The notes beneath the pieces are model-generated. The model did not search any database. It was given only the letters and a program-made list of their open reading frames with translations, and had not been told where the DNA came from. Shown here in pieces: positions 1-9,623 of a stretch of DNA of 9,623 nucleotides (positions are counted from its first letter, which is position 1; each line of letters opens with the position of its first letter). The stretch comes from Candidatus Fermentibacterota bacterium (lineage in GTDB: Bacteria > JAFGKV01): NCBI GenBank assembly GCA_016928395.1, contig JAFGKV010000317.1, positions 1 through 9,623 of the forward strand, in the 5' to 3' direction. Position numbers and translations under genes: made by a program.

Positions 1-81
1 GAGATAGGTGCGCTGTCCACCAGCGAGCGGTGCGCCGGAGACGGGCGCGGGAGCGCCGACGTCGGAGGCGTCAGCGTGAGC
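1..81. other. No recognisable gene at the left edge
   Basis: A G/C-rich stretch in which no reading frame gives a recognisable protein. One frame is open from base 1 into the repeats, ending at 279, but its translation is low-complexity and runs through palindromic elements. Another frame is arginine-rich and also low-complexity. A perfect 10-bp palindrome CCGACGTCGG lies at 56-65. This could be the 3' end of an upstream gene or plain intergenic DNA, and the sequence does not decide which. Confidence 0.4.
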
Positions 82-118
82 AAAATCCCTCCCCCGCCTC
101 CCTTTGCCAAAGGGACGG
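82..118. repeat. Palindromic CCCTTTG/CAAAGGG element, copy 1
   Basis: The core is CCCTTTG (100-106), one central C, then CAAAGGG (108-114), with an AAATCCCTCCCCC-type left flank beginning near 83. Copies 2 and 3 (201-240 and 238-276) share the core and the AAATCCC / GGGGATTT flanks. The set looks like an interspersed palindromic repeat family. The right half of this copy is short and diverges after ACGGG. Confidence 0.7.
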
Positions 119-125
119 GACGCGT

Positions 126-164
126 GAACGCTGAATATCGAACACTCAACATCCAACGTCGAAC
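126..164. repeat. 7-bp-period repeat run (GAACGTT type), upstream run 1
   Basis: Five and a half tandem heptamers in strict register: GAACGCT, GAATATC, GAACACT, CAACATC, CAACGTC, GAAC. The consensus is roughly (G/C)AAYRYY. The same heptamer recurs at 287-310, 8658-8695 and 8788-8808, on both sides of the gene cassette, and I see it nowhere inside the cassette. Confidence 0.75.
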
Positions 165-200
165 CGGAGCGCGGGCGAGGGGCGCGGAGCGCTTGGAGAG

Positions 201-240
201 CCTCCCCCTTTGTCAAAGGGGGAATGAGGGGGATTTGGAA
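201..240. repeat. Palindromic CCCTTTG/CAAAGGG element, copy 2
   Basis: A perfect 9-bp inverted repeat CCCCCTTTG (204-212) / CAAAGGGGG (214-222) around a single central T. It continues into GAATGAGGGGGATTT, the right flank of the element. It abuts copy 3 with almost no spacer. Confidence 0.75.
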
Positions 241-276
241 ATCCCACGCGACCTCCCTTTGCGAAAGGGAGGGGAT
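238..276. repeat. Palindromic CCCTTTG/CAAAGGG element, copy 3
   Basis: A perfect 9-bp inverted repeat CCTCCCTTT (252-260) / AAAGGGAGG (264-272) with centre GCG. It is flanked on the left by AAATCCC and on the right by GGGGATT. It matches copies 1 and 2 in core and flanks, but the outer sequence differs, as expected of a degenerate dispersed family. Confidence 0.75.
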
Positions 277-286
277 TGAGAAGCAT

Positions 287-310
287 GAGCATTCAACGTC
301 GAACGTCGAG
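287..310. repeat. 7-bp-period repeat run, upstream run 2
   Basis: Heptamers GAGCATT, CAACGTC, GAACGTC, then GAG. This is the same unit as the run at 126-164, separated from it by two palindromic elements. It ends about 50 nt before the kinase start, so it may lie in the promoter or 5' leader region. Confidence 0.65.
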
Positions 311-358
311 GCCCTTGAGCAGTGAGGAGAATGCAGTGAGCACATCCCGGGGGATCAG

Positions 359-1960
359 ATGCTGATGTACCAAGCCGGAAGCGTGGTGATCGGGAGATTC
401 GAGCTTCGGCAGAAGCTCGGGGCCGGGGGCATGGGGATCGTCTTCGGCGCCATGGACCGGAAGCTCGACGAAGAAGTCGCGCTTAAGTTTCTCCCACCGG
501 CAATGGCCGGGGATCGCGATTCGCTGGATCTGTTTGCCAGGGAGGTGAAGCGAGCGAGGAAGGTTCCCGGGAAGTACATCCTACGGGTCTATGACATCTG
601 GGACGACGGCGAAGGCGGCGTGTTCGTGACCATGGAATGGGCAAAGGGGGGAGATCTCAATGGCTATCGGAAGCAACATGGACTGGTCGGTTTGCTGACG
701 TGGGACCAGGTTAGGGGTTTACTGCACCCGATCTTGCTGGGCCTGCAGACGGTGCATGAGGCGGGGATCGTGCATCGGGATGTGAAACCGGCGAATATCC
801 TGTTCCGGGAGGATGGGACACCCGTCGTGGCGGACTTCGGAATATCGAAGTCAATCAAGGCCTCCATGAGCCGCATCTCGCAAGATGCGACTATCAGCGG
901 CACGCCGGCCTATATGGCACCCGAAGCGATTCGCGGTGAAGGCGTGAGCCCCGCGACGGATTTGTACGCGATGGGGTGCATGGCATACGAGCTGCTGACA
1001 GGCCATACGCCCTTTGTCGGCGATCCCATGTCGATAATGTACAACCAGACCCATGCAGACCCGTCGTTCCGGGGAATCGAAAGGAATGCGTTGCGGTGGG
1101 TCGGTGCATGCCTGGCGAAAGATCCCGCGCGCAGGGTGCAGACCGCGGAGGCGCTGATCCGAGGCCTGGAGGATCCGAGTCGGTTGCCGATGTATGTGCC
1201 GACCGGTCCTTCGGCGGTGGCCACGGTAGTGCCCGTTCACCAACCGGGGGAGGCGGCACATGCGTCGAGTCCCCCGGCCGCGCCCGCTGACTTGACCCGC
1301 CGAGTGGGGACTCTGCCGAGCGCACAGACTGCGACTCCGGAATCCGCTAGATCCACCGGTGGTCGCGCGGCTTCTCCCCGAGGACCTGCGGTCTCGAGTT
1401 CAGACGTGCGGCCGAGACGCAAACCATCGTCCAATTGGTGGGTTTATGTACCGGTGGGGCTTATCGCACTGCTGGTGATCCTCATTGTGTCGGTTGCCTC
1501 TGTGGCACAAAGGAACAGGGCGCAGCGAGCTATCGGTTCGCCCGCGGCTTCCACAGGCCAGTATCGCACGCCGGCCACGGCGGCCGGCCCATCAGGCTCT
1601 GGCACTGGCCAGGTTCAAGACCAGTTGGGAGTCAGGTCGCAGACGGCCGGTTCGGGATCTGGGGCAACCTCTCAAAGCGACGACCGCGCCGGAGCCTCCG
1701 AGAAGACCCGAACCCCAGTGATTCCCGAGTCGGTTGTTCGCCCCGAAGAGGTCAAACCTCAAGCCAAAGCGGTCAAGCCTTCACCGCCCAAGGTGCAGGC
1801 ACTGTGCCCGAAATGTGGCAAGATGACTGCCAAGACCTCGGACGGGCGATGTACGGAATGCGGCGTACGGCTGGGAAACCGGACCGTTGTGTGCCCGACC
1901 TGCAAGAAATGGACGTCCCCCGGGACTGTCTGTGACCAATGCGGTTCGCGGCTGAGGTAG
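359..1960 (+). CDS. Transmembrane Hanks-type Ser/Thr protein kinase with C-terminal double zinc ribbon
   Basis: ATP-dependent Ser/Thr kinase, predicted to sit in the inner membrane with its catalytic domain in the cytoplasm. The 533-residue protein keeps the full kinase set: glycine loop GAGGMG (21-26), VALK lysine K43, helix-C E62, HRDVKPAN (D141, K143, N146), DFG 159-161, APE 187-189 and D201 of DLYAMG. The activation loop is Ser/Thr-rich (T178, S180, T182), so autophosphorylation is plausible. A low-complexity Pro/Ala/Ser/Thr linker (about 283-358) precedes a single membrane helix (about 361-383). A second disordered stretch follows. The last 51 residues hold four CxxC pairs: C483/C486, C498/C501, C512/C515 and C525/C528, which make two zinc ribbons. 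By topology these should be extracytoplasmic. The start at 359 has only a G-rich weak Shine-Dalgarno (GGGGGA, 349-354); ATG 365 is a possible alternative. It is first in the same-strand cassette, 45 nt before the next gene. Kinase activity is confident; the ligand and substrates are unknown. Confidence 0.95.
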   Translation: MLMYQAGSVVIGRFELRQKLGAGGMGIVFGAMDRKLDEEVALKFLPPAMAGDRDSLDLFAREVKRARKVPGKYILRVYDIWDDGEGGVFVTMEWAKGGDLNGYRKQHGLVGLLTWDQVRGLLHPILLGLQTVHEAGIVHRDVKPANILFREDGTPVVADFGISKSIKASMSRISQDATISGTPAYMAPEAIRGEGVSPATDLYAMGCMAYELLTGHTPFVGDPMSIMYNQTHADPSFRGIERNALRWVGACLAKDPARRVQTAEALIRGLEDPSRLPMYVPTGPSAVATVVPVHQPGEAAHASSPPAAPADLTRRVGTLPSAQTATPESARSTGGRAASPRGPAVSSSDVRPRRKPSSNWWVYVPVGLIALLVILIVSVASVAQRNRAQRAIGSPAASTGQYRTPATAAGPSGSGTGQVQDQLGVRSQTAGSGSGATSQSDDRAGASEKTRTPVIPESVVRPEEVKPQAKAVKPSPPKVQALCPKCGKMTAKTSDGRCTECGVRLGNRTVVCPTCKKWTSPGTVCDQCGSRLR

Positions 1961-2005
1961 GCGGATGTCGTCACCGATGAGAGCATCCAGCCCAAGGAGG
2001 TTGAT

Positions 2006-3412
2006 ATGAGGGTGGCTGCTTTGTTCGTGGCAATGCTATCCTTGGCGGCCACGCTTTGGGCAAAGCCCTGCCCCCGATGCGGGACGGAGAATGATGAGTT
2101 GGCGAAGTTCTGCAAGTCAGGGTGTGGGTATGAGTTCGTCGAGCAGGAGGTGGAGCAAGAAGAGCCGGATCCCGCAACCATCCTCCTGAGGGCAAATGAG
2201 GCCTATGCAGAAGGACGATGGGACGAGGCACTGCGCATCTACGAGGCTTTGCTGAAGAAGGACCCTGAGAACGCTCTGGCGAAGGTACGGATTCCCGACT
2301 GTGAGAGAAGAGTCAGCGAACTCAGGAGACAACGCCAGGCTGAGGAACGAGCCAGAGAGGAGGTTCGCGTCTTCGAACACTGGCTGAGACAAGCCTCCGA
2401 GCAGCGGCAGTATCGATTGGCTACCGCACGAGGTCTCGTCGACGAGGGCAAGCTGGTGGAGGCTGCCACCTACACCTTGCTTGCGCTGGCGCCGGACTGG
2501 AGTTGGCACGAGGGCAGGTCTCTTCTTTGTGATATTGCCGAGAAGTCGAACTGGAGTCATGGCATTGATCAGGCGGCCGGGGTCTTCGCAGACGCCCCGA
2601 TTGCATCACGATTTCGTGAGCAGTTGCAGCAGAGTGCTCTCTCTCTCTGTTTGGAGATGATCTCCGGTCTGGTGAAAGTCGATGTCTCGAACGAGCACGC
2701 CCGAGTTCTCGTTGACTCGGTGTTCGTGGGCCTGACTCCGGTTGAACAGCGGCTTGGTGTCGGCCGGCATGCCATCGTCGTTGAGTTGGAGGGCTACTAC
2801 GCAGTCAGGGAGAGCCTTGAAGTCGCGCCGGGAGATACCGTGCGCCTCACATTCGATCTTACGCCCCTTTTCGGACATGCCGTGTTCCTCTCGCATCCCG
2901 AGGGCGCAGCCGTTCAGGTGAACGGACTGCTCAAAGGCATCACGCCATTGGGACCGATTCGACTCCAGGGCGGCCGCAAGAATCTCTCGTTGGTGCGCAA
3001 GGGATACGAGCCCTGGGGAGGAGTTTTCGAGGTCGGGGAAGGGGACACGGTCTCTGTGTACGGGGATCTGGCGCGCAAGAGCGCCGGGAAGGCGTTCATC
3101 CGTTCGCTCGTGATCCCCGGGTCGGGTCAACGCTACAGGGATCGTGGCACGATGGGCGCGTTCTACACTCTGGCGGAGATGGCTGCCATCGTGGTCAGTG
3201 TGAGGTCCTATGTCTCTTACAACGATGCGGTCGATGAATATGACAGAGCCAAGAGTGCGTATGATCGCGCGACGTCCGGATATGAGCCTCTCTGGAACTC
3301 GATGAACGTGAAGTACGAGGCAGCGAATAGGAAGCGAAAGGACTATAATCTCGCGATTTCTCTCGCGGGGGTAGTCTACGCGGTGAATCTCATAGACTGC
3401 GTGTTGTTCTAG
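2006..3412 (+). CDS. Exported zinc-ribbon/TPR/double-PEGA membrane protein
   Basis: A 468-residue envelope protein of unknown specific role, probably a periplasmic scaffold or sensor partner of the upstream kinase. Residues 1-19 form a signal peptide with likely cleavage after LWA. The mature protein starts directly with a zinc ribbon: C22, C25, C36, C40, where the second pair is CxxxC, not the usual CxxC. A TPR-like segment covers about 58-95, then a charged coiled-coil-like stretch (about 98-125) and a helical region. Two PEGA-type beta domains follow, about 222-288 (with VDSVFVGLTPVEQ) and 292-356 (with VNGLLKGITPLG). PEGA domains are often found with bacterial Ser/Thr kinases. The tail resembles the DUF5683 style: an IPGSGQRY motif (370-377), a hydrophobic segment about 383-400 and another at the very C-terminus (about 449-467), so the protein is probably membrane-held. 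The start is fixed by AAGGAGG at 1994-2000, 5 nt upstream. The first 200 residues are homologous to the product of 6091-7134. Confidence 0.9.
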   Translation: MRVAALFVAMLSLAATLWAKPCPRCGTENDELAKFCKSGCGYEFVEQEVEQEEPDPATILLRANEAYAEGRWDEALRIYEALLKKDPENALAKVRIPDCERRVSELRRQRQAEERAREEVRVFEHWLRQASEQRQYRLATARGLVDEGKLVEAATYTLLALAPDWSWHEGRSLLCDIAEKSNWSHGIDQAAGVFADAPIASRFREQLQQSALSLCLEMISGLVKVDVSNEHARVLVDSVFVGLTPVEQRLGVGRHAIVVELEGYYAVRESLEVAPGDTVRLTFDLTPLFGHAVFLSHPEGAAVQVNGLLKGITPLGPIRLQGGRKNLSLVRKGYEPWGGVFEVGEGDTVSVYGDLARKSAGKAFIRSLVIPGSGQRYRDRGTMGAFYTLAEMAAIVVSVRSYVSYNDAVDEYDRAKSAYDRATSGYEPLWNSMNVKYEAANRKRKDYNLAISLAGVVYAVNLIDCVLF

Positions 3413-3438: not shown

Positions 3439-5985
3439 ATGGCACTGAGAGGATCGCCGATTGGTCGGCTGTTGCTCCTGTTAGCAGCGGTATCGATCGG
3501 TAGCTTCGTTCTGCACTGTGCGCGCGAGCTGGAAGCGCCTCAGGAGGCCGAGTGGATCGAGGTCAGTTCGCCGCGCGAGGACACCAGTTGGACGGTGGGC
3601 ACGACGGGTCATGTCCGGTGGACATCGAGGGGCACCTCAGGGACAGTATGCCTCGATGTGAGCAGTGACTCGGCCCAATCCTGGCTGGCCATTGCTCCCG
3701 AGGCGCCTGACATCGGAAGCTATGCATGGACGGTGACTGGCACGGCTTGTTCGTATTGTGTGCTGCGTGTCAGGGATGTCGACGGGCAGCCGACGGGCAT
3801 CAGTAAGGCTTTCCGCATTCTCCTGCCAGCTCCTGCTCTCGTGGAGCCAGACAGCGGGACCACAACGCAGAACCGCCGACCGTACTTCGGATGGGCTGAT
3901 GCTCCCGGCGCAACCAGCTATCGTCTGCAGATCGATAGTGGAACAGCGTTTTCTTCGCCACACTCGGATACTGTTGTGACCGTCTCGGAGTACGTGCCTC
4001 ACGCCGATCTCTCCTATGGGACTCATTGGTGGCGGGTGTGCGCAGGCTGCGGCGTTTCTTGGAGTGCATGGAGTGCGCCTTGGAGCGTCATGGTGACCAC
4101 CACGATCGGGGTCCCTCTCCTCACTCAACCATCGGCAGGCGATACCCTCTACGTCGCGATGCCGTATTTCGGGTGGAGTGATGTGCCCGGGGCCACGAAG
4201 TATGAGATCACCATCGGTCTGGATTCGCTCTTGTCCAATCCAGAGGTTCAGGACACCACGGTTGTCTCCGAGTATCAGCAGGCGTTGGCCCTCCCGGCGG
4301 AGCGGCACTACTGGCGAGTTAGAGCAGGAGACGGGTTTGGGTGGGGCGCCTATGCGGGTCCTCAATCCTTCGTCATCCTCAACGGGATCGGCGTCCCCGT
4401 GCTCGACCTACCCCCGGATGGCAGCACGACCTATGACCGCACGCCGTTTCTTCGGTGGTATCCGTTGGTCGATGCCGAGAGGTACCGAGTGGAGATTGCT
4501 GCTGATTCAGACTTCGTATTCGTCGAGGTCGCTGATGAAGTGATGGCAACGGAACTCACGGTGAATGAGATGCTGGCGCTGGGGACTCACTATTGGCGAG
4601 TGCGTGCCGGCGTCGGATCCCTGTGGGGTCAATGGACATCTCCGAGGTCGTTTATTGTCAGCGTCGAGCCGGGCGTCCCTGAGCTCCTGTCACCTGCTGA
4701 TGGGGCTACATTGCAGGATCAGACACCTTCCCTGACATGGTCGAGTATCCTGGGTGCGACGAGCTACGCTGTGCAGGTTGCGGACAACACCGCTTTTGTG
4801 TCGCCGCTTATGGACGCCATCGCGGTTGACACGACAGCAACTGTCTCCCCAGCGTTGGTTTCGGGGGCCTACTACTGGCATGTCAGGGCCGGCAATGGTC
4901 TTGAGTGGGGTGACTGGTCTGATCACTGGCAATTCTTGATTGCGACCGTGCCGGCAGTGCCGGGGTTGGTATGGCCGGACAGCGGAGCGATCGTGGAAAG
5001 TGGTGTACCCACGTTCGACTGGACCGATGTAGAGGCTGCCACGGGCTATCAACTCCAGGTGGACAACACGAATTCGTTTGCGCTGCCGATAGAGATCGAC
5101 GTAGAGACCACGCTCTCGACTTACACGCCTTTGGATAGCCTGATCCGGGGTCGGCACTACTGGCGAGTGCGTGCGGGCAATGATCAGGGATGGAGCGCGT
5201 GGACTAATCCGTGGAGTTTTACCTTCCCCGGGCCGACACTACTCGACATGGTGTCACTTCCGGGCGGGGCATTCATGATGGGGTTCTGCGACTCGACGGG
5301 TGCGGGGTATGATCAACAGCCGGTTCACGAGGTGACCCTGAGTCCGTTCAGCATCTCCCGTTATGAGGTCACCCAGGAGCAGTATGCGTTGTACGACCCG
5401 TCGCACGGGTCTGAGTTCCAGAACACCGAGGGGCCGGTCGAGAATGTGAGTTGGTTCGATGCGGCGCGGTTCTGCAACTGGTTGAGCCGACGCGAAGGCC
5501 ACACGGAGTTCTACGTCGAATCAGACTGGAGCTGCAACTGGACGGCCGACGGCTACCGGCTTCCCACCGAGGCGGAATGGGAATACGCCTGCCGTGGAGG
5601 CACCACGAGTCACTACTACGGTGGGGACACCGACACGCTTTACAACCTGTGTGAACCGCTTGACCCGACGCTCGATCCCATAGCCTGGTATTGCGGCAAC
5701 ACATCCGCTCCCCACGAGGTGGGAGGGAAGACACCGAATGCCTTCGGGCTATATGACACCAGCGGAAACGTGTACGAGTGGTGCAATGACTGGTACCTGT
5801 GGAACTACTACGAGTATTCGCCATCCAGCGATCCTCCCGGTCCCGAGAGCGAGCTGCAGCGTGTGAACCGAGGGGGCTCGTGGTATGGCTATGCCATGAA
5901 CTGCCGATCTGCGGCCAGAGCCGCGGACGATCCCGGCGTTGTGTATCCGGATCTCGGGTTCAGGGTGGTGCGGAGAGGCGGGTGA
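3439..5985 (+). CDS. Exported FN3-like repeat protein with C-terminal FGE-sulfatase (SUMF1-type) domain
   Basis: An 848-residue envelope or surface protein, probably binding or adhesive. Residues 1-26 form a signal sequence. C27 follows VLH, a poor lipobox, so lipidation is uncertain. An Ig-like domain of roughly the Kre9/KNH type spans about 38-129. Five FN3-like repeats run from 131 to 599, each with a Pro-rich entry, W-x-(D/S)-V-x-GATxY and YWRVRAG. The C-terminal domain (601-848) is a formylglycine-generating-enzyme/C-type-lectin fold with the marks LPGGAFMMG, PVENVSWFDAARFCNWL, RLPTEAEWEYACRGG (707-721), FGLYDTSGNVYEW, NRGGSW (810-815) and LGFRVV near the end. Known FGEs use two cysteines after the GGS motif. 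Here only C822 lies in that region and the first site reads WYGYAM, so catalysis is unlikely and ligand binding is the better guess. The start is supported by AGGAGG at 3429-3434. The gene lies 26 nt after gene 2, clearly co-transcribed. The codon pattern matches its neighbours. Confidence 0.92.
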   Translation: MALRGSPIGRLLLLLAAVSIGSFVLHCARELEAPQEAEWIEVSSPREDTSWTVGTTGHVRWTSRGTSGTVCLDVSSDSAQSWLAIAPEAPDIGSYAWTVTGTACSYCVLRVRDVDGQPTGISKAFRILLPAPALVEPDSGTTTQNRRPYFGWADAPGATSYRLQIDSGTAFSSPHSDTVVTVSEYVPHADLSYGTHWWRVCAGCGVSWSAWSAPWSVMVTTTIGVPLLTQPSAGDTLYVAMPYFGWSDVPGATKYEITIGLDSLLSNPEVQDTTVVSEYQQALALPAERHYWRVRAGDGFGWGAYAGPQSFVILNGIGVPVLDLPPDGSTTYDRTPFLRWYPLVDAERYRVEIAADSDFVFVEVADEVMATELTVNEMLALGTHYWRVRAGVGSLWGQWTSPRSFIVSVEPGVPELLSPADGATLQDQTPSLTWSSILGATSYAVQVADNTAFVSPLMDAIAVDTTATVSPALVSGAYYWHVRAGNGLEWGDWSDHWQFLIATVPAVPGLVWPDSGAIVESGVPTFDWTDVEAATGYQLQVDNTNSFALPIEIDVETTLSTYTPLDSLIRGRHYWRVRAGNDQGWSAWTNPWSFTFPGPTLLDMVSLPGGAFMMGFCDSTGAGYDQQPVHEVTLSPFSISRYEVTQEQYALYDPSHGSEFQNTEGPVENVSWFDAARFCNWLSRREGHTEFYVESDWSCNWTADGYRLPTEAEWEYACRGGTTSHYYGGDTDTLYNLCEPLDPTLDPIAWYCGNTSAPHEVGGKTPNAFGLYDTSGNVYEWCNDWYLWNYYEYSPSSDPPGPESELQRVNRGGSWYGYAMNCRSAARAADDPGVVYPDLGFRVVRRGG
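3829..5235 (+). repeat. Five in-frame FN3-like coding repeats (~282 nt each)
   Basis: Repeat units begin at residues 131, 224, 318, 412 and 506 of the 3439-5985 product, a period of 93-94 residues. Each opens with a (G/A)VP or AP entry, then W-x-x-V-x-GAT-x-Y, and closes with (Y/W)W(R/H)V(R/C)AG...W. Repeats 2-4 open with GVP; the first carries an unusual CAGC in place of RAGn. The units are diverged from each other at DNA level, so they are old duplications and not a recent slippage tract. Confidence 0.88.
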
Positions 5986-6090: not shown

Positions 6091-7134
6091 ATGAAGGCAG
6101 CAGCAATCCTCCTCATGCTCGCAATCCTCACGGGCAATGCCCGGGCCAAACCCTGCCCTGATTGCGGGACTGAGAACGATGACCTGGCGAAATTCTGCAA
6201 GTCGGGGTGTGGGTTCGAGTTCCAGAAGGCCGGGGATAAGGTCTATGTGAAGGGCGTTGCCGACGAGGCATTCGATGCGGGGAGATGGGAGAGCGCGAAG
6301 CGGCTGTACGAGCACCTGTTGAGTCTGGACCAGGGGAATGCGTGGGCGGAACGTCGGAAGGCTGATTGTGAGCGAGAGTTAGCGGAGGAGACGCGGCGGC
6401 AGAGAGAACGAGCGGCGGCGGAGCGGGCTGCCAGGGAGAAGCGAGAGTACGACGCATGGGTTGCGAATGAGCACCGCAACCAGGCTTTCAATCTTCAGAC
6501 AGCGCAGGGCTTGTTGGAGATCGACGACTACGCAAGCGCCGGCAAGTACGCGCTTCTGGCGTTGGTGGGAGATTGGGAGAATGTAGCGGCACGCACCATT
6601 CTCTGGGAAGTTTTCGAGAACGGATTGCCCGGAGAGTGGGTCGATGTGCAGAAGGAATTTCGTGGTGTACCGGTGGCGAAGAAGTACCGAGATGAGCTGA
6701 CGGAGAATAGTGCGAAAGTTGGCGCCGACATTGTGGTCGGGATGGCCGGGAACGCAGAGCAACGAGGTGACAAGAAGGTGGCAGTGGCCCTATACGCTTT
6801 GGCGGTGCAGTACGACCCGAGCAATTCAGCAGGACGGGAAGGATTGCAGAGGTATTCGCCGCAATCGGGCGAGGATCCAGACTCCCGGCTGCGCAAGCGT
6901 TTGAGGACCATTGAACCCGAGGTGCCAAAATGGGTAGTGGAGCAAGAGATCGAGGCCTTCGCCAAAGTGCGCATCCAGATTCGGGAAGATGGGCGCATCG
7001 GCACGACCGAGTTGACCATGTCGTCCGGGCACCGGGAGCTGGACAACCTCGCCATCGGCGCAGTCAAGGAGTGGCTGTATGAACCAGGGCTCGTTGAGTA
7101 TCGCGTTGTCCGTGTGAATTTCAAGAAGCGATAA
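6091..7134 (+). CDS. Exported zinc-ribbon/TPR protein with TonB C-terminal domain
   Basis: A 347-residue envelope protein and paralogue of the 2006-3412 product. Residues 1-19 are a signal peptide ending ARA or, if uncleaved, an N-terminal membrane anchor as in TonB. Residues 20-44 form the same zinc ribbon (C22, C25, C36, C40, CxxxC in the second pair), with 22 of 25 residues identical to gene 2. A TPR-like/coiled-coil region (about 50-130) with an Arg/Glu-rich helix and further helical repeats follow. The last ~77 residues (271-347) read as a TonB C-terminal domain: a VPKW entry, beta strands around VRIQIREDGRIG, then SSGHRELDNLAIGAVKEW (311-328) and YEP. TonB-C domains contact outer-membrane transporters or other envelope partners. 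A proton-motive TonB role is doubtful, because no ExbB/ExbD lies nearby and no Pro-rich spacer is seen. The start is chosen by AAAGGTGG (6077-6084). The stop TAA overlaps the ATG of the decayed gene that follows. Confidence 0.9.
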   Translation: MKAAAILLMLAILTGNARAKPCPDCGTENDDLAKFCKSGCGFEFQKAGDKVYVKGVADEAFDAGRWESAKRLYEHLLSLDQGNAWAERRKADCERELAEETRRQRERAAAERAAREKREYDAWVANEHRNQAFNLQTAQGLLEIDDYASAGKYALLALVGDWENVAARTILWEVFENGLPGEWVDVQKEFRGVPVAKKYRDELTENSAKVGADIVVGMAGNAEQRGDKKVAVALYALAVQYDPSNSAGREGLQRYSPQSGEDPDSRLRKRLRTIEPEVPKWVVEQEIEAFAKVRIQIREDGRIGTTELTMSSGHRELDNLAIGAVKEWLYEPGLVEYRVVRVNFKKR

Positions 7135-7463
7135 TGGCTTCCCGGCATTTCCCACGGTGGGTGCTGATCGCCATGGTGCTTGGTACGAACGGAGGCCTCT
7201 AAGCCTAAAACCTTGACGCCAGCGCGTTGTGTCGGTATGCAGCAAGCCACGATAACATGCATGGGAGCAGGTGGGAGTGGTTCTGGGATTGGTATGGGCT
7301 CGATGCGTCGCGGTTTGAGAGTGATCTGGTTGGTTCCTCGTTGGTCCGAGAGCGAATCCATCGTGGCGGTGCCTGGGACGACCTGACCCAGGACCGCCGC
7401 TCGGCGAGCCGTGGCGGGAACGATCCCGGTCTTCAAGGCATCGGCTTGGGATTCCGGGGGTGA
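7134..7463 (+). pseudogene. Decayed FGE-sulfatase-domain gene: signal-peptide start plus FGE C-terminal remnant
   Basis: An ATG at 7134-7136 overlaps the preceding stop (TAATG) and opens a 22-codon segment that looks like a signal peptide, with a basic start and then WVLIAMVLG. It ends at TAA 7200-7202; a second stop, TAA, is at 7206-7208. In the same frame the sequence continues from about 7209 to TGA 7461-7463 as the end of an FGE/C-type-lectin domain: DNMHGSRWEWFWDWYG (compare DMHGNVWEWCWDWYG, typical of the family), then HRGGAWDD, RRSASRGGNDPG and GLGFRG. The middle of the gene (FN3-like or N-terminal FGE parts) is absent. The best reading is an internal deletion plus stop codons in a former secreted FGE gene, paralogous to the C-terminus of the 3439-5985 product. 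A short FGE fragment could start at ATG 7227, but no good ribosome site precedes it. Confidence 0.75.
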
Positions 7464-7521: not shown

Positions 7522-8631
7522 ATGAAGTCTGTGGCTGTGATTGGGTTCCTTGTGGTGGTGGGAGCAGGTGGAAAGGGCGCTGCGCAGGTCGAGCTGACGC
7601 CGCCGATTCCGACGGCGCAGGGAACGCTGCGGTCCATCGTAACGGTTCGGGACGGGGCCGGAGCCATTGTCAGCGGACTTGCGGCTGATCGGTTCTCGAT
7701 CACCATCGAGGGCCAGTCGGCGGCGGTGTCGTCGGTTCGCCCGATCACGGAGCAGTGGCTGGCCGTGGCCATGCTCATCGACAAGAGTGGGAGTATGAAG
7801 GGCCGGCCCTTGGCCGCGGCCAAAGAGGCCGCAAAGGACTTTGTCCGTAGATGTGGGGGACAGACGCTGTTTGCGGTCGTGCCCTTTGATGAGGACAGCC
7901 TGCCGCCGCCGCAGTTCCTAAGGGCCGACCAGGGGGTCGGGCAGCTCATCGACGGCATCCAGCTCGGCAACAACACCGCCTTGTACGATGCGATACTGAC
8001 CATTCTGCCTTCGTTGGCTGATCATTGGGCGCCGCGCAAGGCAATGATCGCCTTGACCGACGGGAAGGATACGCGGAGCAAGGCAACCTTCAACGCCCTG
8101 GAGAGCCGGATTAAGGGTTCGGCAGTGCCCGTCTACACGGTGGGCCTTGGGAACGATATCGAGGCCCGCAAGCTGGAGGCAGTGGCGGCAGCGACGGGTG
8201 GGAGGTACTTGCACGCCCCGGAACCGAGCGATCTCATACGAATCTACCAGGCCATCGCGGCGGAGCTGGAGAGCGGGTATGTGGTGGAGTTCGAGGAGCC
8301 CGGTGGTCCCGGAGCGACCGGGGGCCGCCAACTTGTGCTGACCGTGCAGACGCCGGGAGGACCGGTCACGCACACGATGCTGTTCGAGCAAGGGGGTGAA
8401 CCGGTGGCCGTGGAGCCTGGGCCGACCCACGCGACGGTCACCGTGTCGCCGAAAGAAGAGGCGTTCCGCTGGGAGCCCGTGGCCATTGGAGCGGCCGTTG
8501 GTCTCCTGCTTGGGCTGGCGGTTGCCTTGATCGCCCGAACCCGCGTGGCGGCCGTGCGAGTTCTGGCGGTTGCGTTGGCCGTGCTGTTGGGCGCTTTGGC
8601 AGGTGGAGTCGTGTCGCTTATCGCGAAGTAG
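7522..8631 (+). CDS. Secreted/membrane-anchored VWA-domain protein with intact MIDAS
   Basis: A 369-residue envelope protein with a von Willebrand factor A domain, a metal-dependent protein-binding module. Residues 1-22 form a signal peptide. A short beta domain (about 33-77, VRDGAGAIVSGL then SITIEG) resembles the lead-in of the VWFA-related proteins common in Acidobacteria. The VWA domain (about 80-275) has a complete metal site: DKSGS (D87, S89, S91), T152 in NNTALYDA and D180 in LTDGKD. After an extended Pro/Gly/Val region, two hydrophobic segments (about 320-338 and 346-368) end the protein, so the VWA should face the periplasm with the C-terminus anchored in the inner membrane. The start is fixed by GGAGGT at 7511-7516. 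It lies 58 nt after the pseudogene stop and on the same strand as the kinase cassette, so it may share the transcript or be partly independent. The specific partner is unknown. Confidence 0.92.
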   Translation: MKSVAVIGFLVVVGAGGKGAAQVELTPPIPTAQGTLRSIVTVRDGAGAIVSGLAADRFSITIEGQSAAVSSVRPITEQWLAVAMLIDKSGSMKGRPLAAAKEAAKDFVRRCGGQTLFAVVPFDEDSLPPPQFLRADQGVGQLIDGIQLGNNTALYDAILTILPSLADHWAPRKAMIALTDGKDTRSKATFNALESRIKGSAVPVYTVGLGNDIEARKLEAVAAATGGRYLHAPEPSDLIRIYQAIAAELESGYVVEFEEPGGPGATGGRQLVLTVQTPGGPVTHTMLFEQGGEPVAVEPGPTHATVTVSPKEEAFRWEPVAIGAAVGLLLGLAVALIARTRVAAVRVLAVALAVLLGALAGGVVSLIAK

Positions 8632-8657
8632 GGGGGGGAAGAGAGGGGGACAAGTCC

Positions 8658-8695
8658 CAACATCGAACGTCGAACGTTGAACGTTGAACGTTGAA
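8658..8695. repeat. 7-bp-period repeat run, downstream run 1
   Basis: Heptamers CAACATC, GAACGTC, GAACGTT, GAACGTT, GAACGTT, GAA in strict register. It is the cleanest run in the window; three consecutive identical units imply recent expansion. It begins 26 nt after the VWA stop, following a G-rich stretch (8633-8650). The core AACGTT is itself palindromic. Confidence 0.8.
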
Positions 8696-8738
8696 GGGGA
8701 AGGACGGAATCTCGCTCGACTACGCCTCTGGAGGGAGA

Positions 8739-8766
8739 GGGTTCGCGGTTGACACCGCTCCTACAT
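8739..8766. repeat. REP-like hairpin element
   Basis: GCGGT (8745-8749), TGAC loop, ACCGC (8754-8758) form a 5-bp stem, with a CTCCTACA tail to the right. Read on the minus strand this is TGTAGGAGCGGTGTCAACCGC. It resembles the TGTAGGAGCGGnnnnnnCCGCGA interspersed palindromes I know from several bacterial genomes. A single copy is present here. The TTGACA inside it is not taken as a promoter. Confidence 0.5.
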
Positions 8767-8787
8767 TGGGGAAGGGAGCGGGGAGGG

Positions 8788-8808
8788 GAACGTTGAGCAT
8801 CGAACGTT
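8788..8808. repeat. 7-bp-period repeat run, downstream run 2
   Basis: Heptamers GAACGTT, GAGCATC, GAACGTT. It is the same unit as the runs at 126-164, 287-310 and 8658-8695, and the last copy before the base composition turns AT-rich. Confidence 0.65.
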
Positions 8809-8892
8809 CAGGGGAAACTGGAAGAGATAGAACAGGGGAAACAGCAAACTTTGTTTTTTAAAGTTGGATGGTAGAGATACTTTATATTTTCA

Positions 8893-9000: not shown

Positions 9001-9623
9001 CTAGAAATGGCGATCCAGCCCGTATAGATCGCTCAGCTGTTCCGCCAGCGGGCTGTTCTTCTCCAGCACCCGGCCACCGCTCTCGTCAGGGTACACCAGA
9101 TACGCCTCCCGTATGCCTCCCATTGCCAGCAGCCATACCCGCGCACTCATGCTCAGTCCCGCCTGTTCCGCTTCCAGTAGCAGCAGCTTCAAGAGCAGCA
9201 ATCCTAACACACAGCAGAACGCATGCATCCGGATCTTCGTGTCCGTCCAGTTCCGGATCGGCCACATGCTTACTTCACTCCGATCCTTCAGCTCCTTGAA
9301 TACATCCTCCACCTTCCGCCTCTCCCCATCCAGCTCGATCATCTCCTCCGCCCGCATCCCCATCCGGTTCGTGAACAACACCCGCTTCCCAAACTGCTTC
9401 TTCTTCTCCCGACACTCGAATCCCCTCCGCCTCACCCGGAGCGTGTCTCCCTCGATCTCGTACTCCACATACCTCCGCGCCTGCGCTCCCTGCACCTGCT
9501 GCTCCCGTAACACCTGATCCAGCCGCCCCCGCGTCCGCGTTCCCTCCTCCTCTCCCCAGTACTGCCTCCACACCTTCCGAAGCTCCTCCTTCGCTCCCTC
9601 GATCCGATGGTTGAATCCCCGTA
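9001..9623 (-). CDS. DDE transposase, IS4/IS1634-like (5' part outside the window)
   Basis: C-terminal part of a cut-and-paste transposase. The frame is open from the stop (minus-strand TAG, 9003-9001) through the window edge. Codons before the GTG at 9573 continue as a plausible protein (IEGAKEELRKVWRQYW), so the gene is cut by the window, not started at 9573. The C-terminal region has RKVEDVFKELK, with a Glu near 9309-9307 in the position expected of the third catalytic residue of the DDE set. It then reads RNWTDTKIRMHAFCCVLGLLLLKLL, in its middle matching the (Y/N)WTDxxIRxH and hydrophobic-helix pattern of IS4-superfamily enzymes, IS1634 type being the closest I recall. The first two catalytic Asp residues should lie upstream of the window. 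It runs convergently toward the VWA gene. Intactness cannot be judged. Confidence 0.8.
   Translation of the reverse strand, partial: RGFNHRIEGAKEELRKVWRQYWGEEEGTRTRGRLDQVLREQQVQGAQARRYVEYEIEGDTLRVRRRGFECREKKKQFGKRVLFTNRMGMRAEEMIELDGERRKVEDVFKELKDRSEVSMWPIRNWTDTKIRMHAFCCVLGLLLLKLLLLEAEQAGLSMSARVWLLAMGGIREAYLVYPDESGGRVLEKNSPLAEQLSDLYGLDRHF

What the first reader, a model, noticed from the sequence alone, without database searches (positions are those of the whole stretch)
1804..2140. Zinc ribbons predicted outside the cytoplasm on a kinase and its neighbour
The kinase ends in two CxxC/CxxC zinc ribbons placed after its only membrane helix. The next gene encodes a signal peptide followed immediately by a zinc ribbon at the mature N-terminus, and gene 6091-7134 repeats that layout. 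Zinc ribbons are normally cytoplasmic, where thiols stay reduced. Three exported copies in one cassette suggest a periplasmic metal- or redox-sensing module, or ribbon-ribbon contacts linking kinase and partners. The Cys patterns and signal peptides are seen directly; the topology and role are inferred.
Basis: partly seen in the sequence, partly recalled or inferred. Interest (0 to 1): 0.75.

Follow-up and report, generated by a model that had tools for sequence, protein, structure and literature searches.

The report
Exported zinc ribbons on envelope kinase
A bacterium from a little-known anaerobic lineage carries a membrane kinase and partner proteins whose small zinc-binding knobs, normally found only inside cells, are predicted to sit outside the inner membrane, probably workable because the genome lacks the usual machinery that oxidises such knobs.

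Summary
The kinase (359-1960) has an intact catalytic domain, one membrane helix and two C-terminal CxxC/CxxC ribbons. Genes 2006-3412 and 6091-7134 begin with a signal peptide followed two residues later by a Cys4 ribbon. The layout recurs in a second cassette of the same genome and in a same-family genome ('Candidatus Fermentibacteria' MAG CSMAG_2897): three of three ribbon kinases lie with an exported ribbon-TPR partner. Where the ribbon is missing, an FGE domain (kinase) or a DUF3280 domain (partner) takes its place. Signal-peptide-plus-ribbon proteins also occur in six unrelated genomes of a 386-genome sample, on HtrA/PDZ proteases and PEGA proteins, without a kinase nearby. All nine such genomes lack DsbB and VKOR (109 of 386 have one; p about 0.05-0.09), and the host's exported proteins show no even-cysteine bias, so exported thiols there need not be oxidised. 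I read the cassette as a trans-envelope phospho-signalling module that works like PpkA-TagR/RtkS: a periplasmic partner docks on the kinase's periplasmic tail, and the ribbons are structural docking knobs. Topology, zinc binding and kinase-partner contact are inferred. A redox- or metal-sensing role is neither supported nor excluded.

The parts
359..1960 (+). Ser/Thr protein kinase - TM - Pro/Ser/Thr-rich linker - double zinc ribbon (533 aa)
   Evidence: PF00069 7.3e-48; GAGGMG, HRDVKPAN, DFG and APE motifs present; one TM helix
1448..1504 (+). single transmembrane helix of the kinase (residues 364-382)
   Evidence: hydropathy scan; the N-terminal kinase domain must be cytoplasmic, so the C-terminus is predicted outside
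1805..1861 (+). kinase ribbon 1, CPKC...CTEC
   Evidence: AlphaFold2 of the double ribbon mean pLDDT 89.8
1892..1942 (+). kinase ribbon 2, CPTC...CDQC
2006..2062 (+). signal peptide of gene 2 (MRVAALFVAMLSLAATLWA)
   Evidence: sequence; n-, h- and c-regions also present in three homologues although the h-regions differ
2069..2125 (+). exported ribbon of gene 2 (C22, C25, C36, C40; CxxxC second knuckle)
2006..3412 (+). gene 2: SP-ribbon-TPR-PEGA-PEGA-DUF5683 (C-terminal membrane segment)
   Evidence: Pfam PEGA 1.4e-20, DUF5683 1.3e-7, TPR_14; TPR region pLDDT above 90
3439..5985 (+). gene 3: probable lipoprotein, Ig/FN3-like repeats and FGE-sulfatase (SUMF1-like) domain
   Evidence: PF03781 2.9e-51; lipobox-like VLHC
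6091..6147 (+). signal peptide of gene 4 (MKAAAILLMLAILTGNARA)
6154..6210 (+). exported ribbon of gene 4 (C22, C25, C36, C40)
6091..7134 (+). gene 4: SP-ribbon-TPR-TonB C-terminal domain; paralogue of gene 2 over residues 1-222
   Evidence: 37% identity; TonB_C 2.1e-8
7522..8631 (+). VWA protein with signal peptide and C-terminal hydrophobic segments; a homologue (by eye) sits in the G002 cassette
   Evidence: PF00092 1.1e-10; G002:C216 2319-3509

Best explanation
A trans-envelope Ser/Thr phospho-signalling module. The kinase domain lies in the cytoplasm. Its single helix crosses the inner membrane, and its tail carries two zinc ribbons in the periplasm. Exported partners (SP-ribbon-TPR plus PEGA/DUF5683, TonB_C or FGE), an FGE lipoprotein and VWA proteins form the periplasmic input. 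Sister cassettes supply cytoplasmic-facing FHA and PP2C partners. The partners most likely dock on the kinase tail, directly or through a shared ligand, and promote dimerisation and autophosphorylation, as TagR or RtkS is proposed to do for PpkA. The ribbons are small zinc-stabilised structural or docking knobs. They can exist outside the cytoplasm because this anaerobe-like lineage has neither DsbB nor VKOR, so exported thiols are not enzymatically oxidised by those routes. Shown: sequence, domain order, conservation and swap patterns, gene linkage, and absence of DsbB/VKOR in the assembled genomes. Inferred: topology, zinc, contact and signal.
For: Ribbon, SP and TM pattern in the window and two more cassettes. 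Ribbon kinase plus SP-ribbon-TPR partner in 3 of 3 cassettes, while the ribbonless partner on C318 has no kinase nearby. FHA and PP2C are adjacent on C117; FHA sits after an SP, an outer domain and a TM, so it faces the cytoplasm. The kinase tail is FGE instead of ribbon on C291, and the partner tail is FGE in G002. DsbB and VKOR are absent in G000-G002 and in all SP-ribbon genomes, against 109 of 386 in the background. No even-Cys bias in exported proteins: 57% against 56%. SP-ribbon recurs on HtrA/PDZ and PEGA proteins in unrelated genomes. The double ribbon is modelled at pLDDT 89.8. Precedent for a periplasmic partner activating a transmembrane kinase: PMC6082577, PMC10482370.
Against: No topology, zinc or interaction data. 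Charges flanking the kinase TM are nearly balanced (4 before, 3 after). The window ribbons score below Pfam cut-offs. The DsbB/VKOR association is weak (p 0.049 by genome, 0.095 by lineage), and other oxidants (a DsbA-only route or DsbI type) were not tested. No FHA or PP2C gene lies in the window itself. Foldseek on the double ribbon gave no significant match. Only three ribbon-kinase cassettes, all in one family, were found.
Confidence: 0.58

Rival explanations
1. Periplasmic metal or redox sensor: the Cys4 sites of kinase and partners switch between zinc-bound and oxidised or apo states, and this gates the kinase.
For: Invariant cysteines on both kinase and partners in 3 of 3 cassettes; thiols would be reduced at rest without DsbB/VKOR, so an oxidant pulse would be a real signal.
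Against: The motif matches ordinary structural ribbons (the C117 copy passes PF13240). Ribbons are swapped for FGE or DUF3280 domains in paralogues, and exported ribbons occur without kinases on proteases and PEGA proteins. Nothing shows switching.
Confidence: 0.17
2. Exported ribbons are neutral remnants: cytoplasmic N-terminal ribbons reused as short folded caps after signal-peptide gain, with no specific role in kinase control; the linkage to the kinase reflects cassette duplication.
For: SP-ribbon proteins without a kinase in unrelated genomes; ribbons lost in C318 and C291.
Against: The ribbon is the most conserved part of the partner, and ribbons occur on both kinase and partner in every ribbon cassette found.
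Confidence: 0.17
3. The ribbons are cytoplasmic after all: the kinase helix is a hairpin or not membrane-spanning, and the N-terminal hydrophobic segments of genes 2 and 4 are uncleaved N-out anchors, as in LapB (from memory).
For: Flanking charges of the kinase helix are nearly symmetric; LapB shows that a TM-TPR-ribbon protein can face the cytoplasm.
Against: Genes 2 and 4 have an R/K n-region, short h-regions and small-residue cleavage sites, conserved across four divergent copies. Downstream domains (PEGA, TonB_C, FGE) are typically extracytoplasmic, and the same SP-ribbon start precedes HtrA/PDZ proteases elsewhere. One helix after an N-terminal kinase domain places the tail outside.
Confidence: 0.08

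Closest known systems
Threonine phosphorylation pathway PpkA-PppA-Fha with periplasmic activators TagR (P. aeruginosa) or RtkS (S. marcescens) (PMC6082577, PMC10482370, PMC11881912)
   Same: Transmembrane Ser/Thr kinase with a periplasmic tail, adjacent periplasmic partner and lipoprotein, PP2C phosphatase and FHA protein in the sister cassette; FGE domains among the periplasmic parts (TagR having an FGE-like fold is from memory).
   Different: No T6SS sheath gene; the tail carries ribbons or FGE; RtkS needs DsbA (PMC6082577) whereas this lineage lacks DsbB/VKOR; the partners are TPR/PEGA/TonB_C proteins.
PknB/Stk1 PASTA kinases
   Same: N-terminal kinase, one TM helix, extracytoplasmic tail; best NCBIfam hit NF033483 over residues 7-390.
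   Different: No PASTA repeats; below cut-off (221.9 against 450 bits); tail is a double ribbon.
Ordinary N-terminal zinc-ribbon (PF13240/PF13248/DZR) bacterial proteins, including ribbon-kinases
   Same: Same Cys4 motif CPxCGxxN...AKFCxxCG.
   Different: There the ribbon mostly starts at the cytoplasmic N-terminus; here it follows a signal peptide or a TM helix.
LapB (TM-TPR-rubredoxin-type ribbon; from memory; weak PDB hit to the kinase ribbons)
   Same: Combination of membrane segment, TPR and ribbon.
   Different: LapB's TPR and ribbon face the cytoplasm and the ribbon is C-terminal; here the ribbon follows a cleavable signal.

Membership tests
T6SS threonine phosphorylation pathway (PpkA-TagR/RtkS-Fha-PppA) | Transmembrane Ser/Thr kinase with extracytoplasmic tail | tested here: met
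   PF00069 plus one TM helix, 151 residues after it; topology by prediction only
T6SS threonine phosphorylation pathway (PpkA-TagR/RtkS-Fha-PppA) | Adjacent exported partner protein | tested here: met
   Genes 2-4 downstream; partner in 3 of 3 ribbon-kinase cassettes
T6SS threonine phosphorylation pathway (PpkA-TagR/RtkS-Fha-PppA) | PP2C phosphatase and FHA protein in the cluster | tested here: inconclusive
   Both on C117 and FHA in G002; none in the 9.6 kb window contig, which begins 358 bases before the kinase
T6SS threonine phosphorylation pathway (PpkA-TagR/RtkS-Fha-PppA) | Type VI secretion system as target | tested here: not met
   VipB/TssC PF05943 absent from G000, G001, G002
PASTA-domain kinase (NF033483) | C-terminal extracellular PASTA repeats and score above cut-off | tested here: not met
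   221.9 against 450 bits; no PASTA in Pfam scan
Zn_Ribbon_1/DZR zinc ribbons | Pfam score above gathering cut-off in the window proteins | tested here: not met
   14.4 and 13.5 against 25; DZR 18.0 against 27.3; C117 paralogue passes with 29.0
Zn_Ribbon_1/DZR zinc ribbons | Four conserved cysteines in two knuckles per ribbon | tested here: met
   Invariant in alignments A1 and A4
Zn_Ribbon_1/DZR zinc ribbons | Binds zinc | not testable with these tools
   needs purified protein

The most novel reading that the evidence does not exclude
Extracytoplasmic zinc ribbons form an overlooked class of envelope modules, placed directly behind signal peptides in lineages without DsbB/VKOR, and in this family they have been built into a kinase receptor whose ribbon-ribbon contacts, or zinc/redox state, relay envelope condition to the cytoplasm.
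Probability: 0.25. Interest if true: 0.75.

Novelty: new variant of a known kind. Interest (0 to 1): 0.56.

Why it matters
Zinc ribbons are usually taken as a sign of cytoplasmic location. If they are stable outside the inner membrane in lineages without DsbB/VKOR, location rules for Cys4 proteins need a lineage-dependent correction. The module also gives a kinase-partner pair, with natural ribbon/FGE swaps, in which to test how periplasmic partners switch on bacterial transmembrane Ser/Thr kinases.

Tried and rejected
Single-protein search of GTDB contigs with gene 2 found no relative; with the alignment only the G002 contig was found. A kinase-tail profile in 386 genomes found no other kinase-TM-ribbon protein; hits were unrelated cytoplasmic ribbons, Met-tRNA synthetases and one N-terminal-ribbon kinase; distant versions may have been missed because the linkers are low complexity. 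40 further ribbon hits were examined for a preceding signal peptide: none, mostly plain N-terminal ribbons. AlphaFold2 on gene 2 with three sequences gave confident TPRs only (ribbon about 50-56, PEGA and C-terminus below 50). Foldseek on the kinase ribbons listed RanBP-type and other zinc-binding folds only at E above 0.6. Literature searches for periplasmic, exported or extracytoplasmic zinc ribbons returned nothing in the open-access library, which does not prove absence. The export predictor used for the Cys-parity test is a crude script (it flagged the kinases too), so that result is supportive only.

Full report
Observation. The window (G000:C51, a 9623-base contig of a 4.79 Mb, 343-contig assembly) encodes a kinase (359-1960), gene 2 (2006-3412), a probable FGE lipoprotein (3439-5985), gene 4 (6091-7134), a VWA protein (7522-8631) and an IS1634-like transposase fragment (9001-9621, minus). 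The kinase has the expected catalytic motifs, one hydrophobic helix (residues 364-382) and eight cysteines in two ribbons at the C-terminus. Genes 2 and 4 begin with a signal peptide and then KPCPxCGTEND(E/D)LAKFCKSGCG. The finding is confirmed, with the detail that both exported copies in the window have a CxxxC second knuckle and, like the kinase ribbons, score below the Pfam cut-offs.

Is it more than chance? The own genome holds a second cassette on C117: FHA protein, PP2C, kinase-TM-double ribbon, SP-ribbon-TPR-PEGA-DUF5683, lipoprotein-like protein. There the exported ribbon is canonical and passes PF13240 (29.0 bits). The same-family genome G002 has kinase-TM-double ribbon, VWA-FHA, SP-ribbon-TPR-FGE and a VWA homologue of the window's; its contig is JAUXFG010000138.1, labelled Candidatus Fermentibacteria bacterium CSMAG_2897. 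Across the four exported proteins (the other three are 30-45% identical to gene 2) the ribbon is the best conserved stretch and all four cysteines are invariant. The kinase cysteines are all kept in three kinases while the linkers differ.

Natural swaps. On C291 a close kinase (62% identical over residues 2-412) ends in an FGE domain instead of ribbons; its contig ends beside it, so its partner is unknown. On C318 a gene 2 homologue has a DUF3280 domain in place of the ribbon and no kinase nearby. So ribbon partner and ribbon kinase go together in 3 of 3 cases, and ribbon and FGE occupy the same slot on the kinase. This fits periplasmic docking modules.

Exported ribbons elsewhere. A profile of the signal-ribbon-TPR start was run on 386 genomes, nearly all from other phyla. 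Outside this phylum, signal peptide followed directly by a ribbon was found in six genomes: three tandem HtrA-like Trypsin_2-PDZ proteases (G185), a similar protease (G260), SP-ribbon-PEGA-PEGA proteins with C-terminal membrane segments very like gene 2 and an SP-ribbon protein that looks like an outer-membrane barrel (G106; barrel by eye, no Pfam hit), two adjacent proteins in G060, and single ones in G121 and G384. None had a kinase motif within the fetched stretches of roughly 6-14 kb. Within the phylum, G001 has an SP-ribbon-TPR protein on a 3.2 kb contig. By contrast 40 further ribbon hits of the same profile had no signal peptide; most begin at the cytoplasmic N-terminus. The layout is therefore uncommon but recurrent, and it does not require a kinase.

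Why it may be possible. DsbB (PF02600) and VKOR (PF07884) were not found in G000, G001, G002, G106, G185 or G060, with controls ringing. In the 386-genome sample 109 have at least one of them, but none of the nine SP-ribbon genomes does: p = 0.049 counting genomes, 0.095 counting lineages, so suggestive only. In about 0.9 Mb of the own genome the even-cysteine fraction is the same in exported and cytoplasmic proteins (57% against 56%, strict set), whereas organisms with oxidative folding tend to show an excess of even counts (PMC12453122). Exported proteins are not Cys-poor (1.27-1.35% against 1.52%). DsbA-only or other oxidants were not tested, and the export caller is crude.

Mechanism. The topology of the whole set is coherent: kinase, FHA and PP2C domains are predicted on the cytoplasmic side of single helices, with ribbon, FGE, VWA, PEGA and TonB_C domains on the other. 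The closest working precedent is the PpkA pathway, in which a periplasmic protein (TagR or RtkS) acts on the periplasmic domain of a transmembrane kinase, leading to autophosphorylation and Fha phosphorylation that PppA reverses (PMC6082577, PMC10482370, PMC11881912). No T6SS sheath gene was found in the three genomes, so this is not filed as that pathway; it is proposed to work like it. The step from linkage to contact, and any signal, is inference.

Structure. The kinase double ribbon is predicted with mean pLDDT 89.8 as short beta strands; structure comparison gave only weak zinc-ribbon matches. The gene 2 model is confident only in the TPR part. AlphaFold does not test zinc.

Verdict. The surprise about thiols is probably explained by the lineage's lack of DsbB/VKOR. 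The kinase-partner idea is supported by linkage and swaps, while metal/redox sensing is possible but unsupported.

Noticed in passing
window 7227-7463: Short ORF resembling the C-terminal end of an FGE domain (WEWFWDWYG...RVRERIHRGGAWDD...GLGFRG), by eye: a decayed FGE gene fragment between gene 4 and the VWA gene.
   Followed up: no
window 80-345 and 8650-8820: Repeated intergenic text: 'ccctttgtcaaagggggaatgagggggattt'-like palindromic elements and 'aacgtcgaacgttgaacg' runs. A related element seems to be translated inside the Pro-rich tail of the C117 PP2C (L007 1977-3611).
   Followed up: no
window 9001-9621: IS1634-like transposase fragment at the contig end (NF033559 68 bits, below cut-off), possibly why the contig breaks here.
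   Followed up: no
L135 3866-8247: Three tandem SP-zinc-ribbon-HtrA-like proteases in an unrelated genome (G185): exported ribbons on periplasmic proteases.
   Followed up: partly
L153 5444-7294: Kinase with an N-terminal (cytoplasmic) ribbon and a tail after its TM helix that looks by eye like a TonB C-terminal domain: the reverse ribbon placement, but sharing a TonB_C-like domain with the window cassette.
   Followed up: no
L077 5919-8261 and L078 3771-5762: VWA-TM-FHA proteins beside these kinases: periplasmic VWA and cytoplasmic FHA in one chain.
   Followed up: partly
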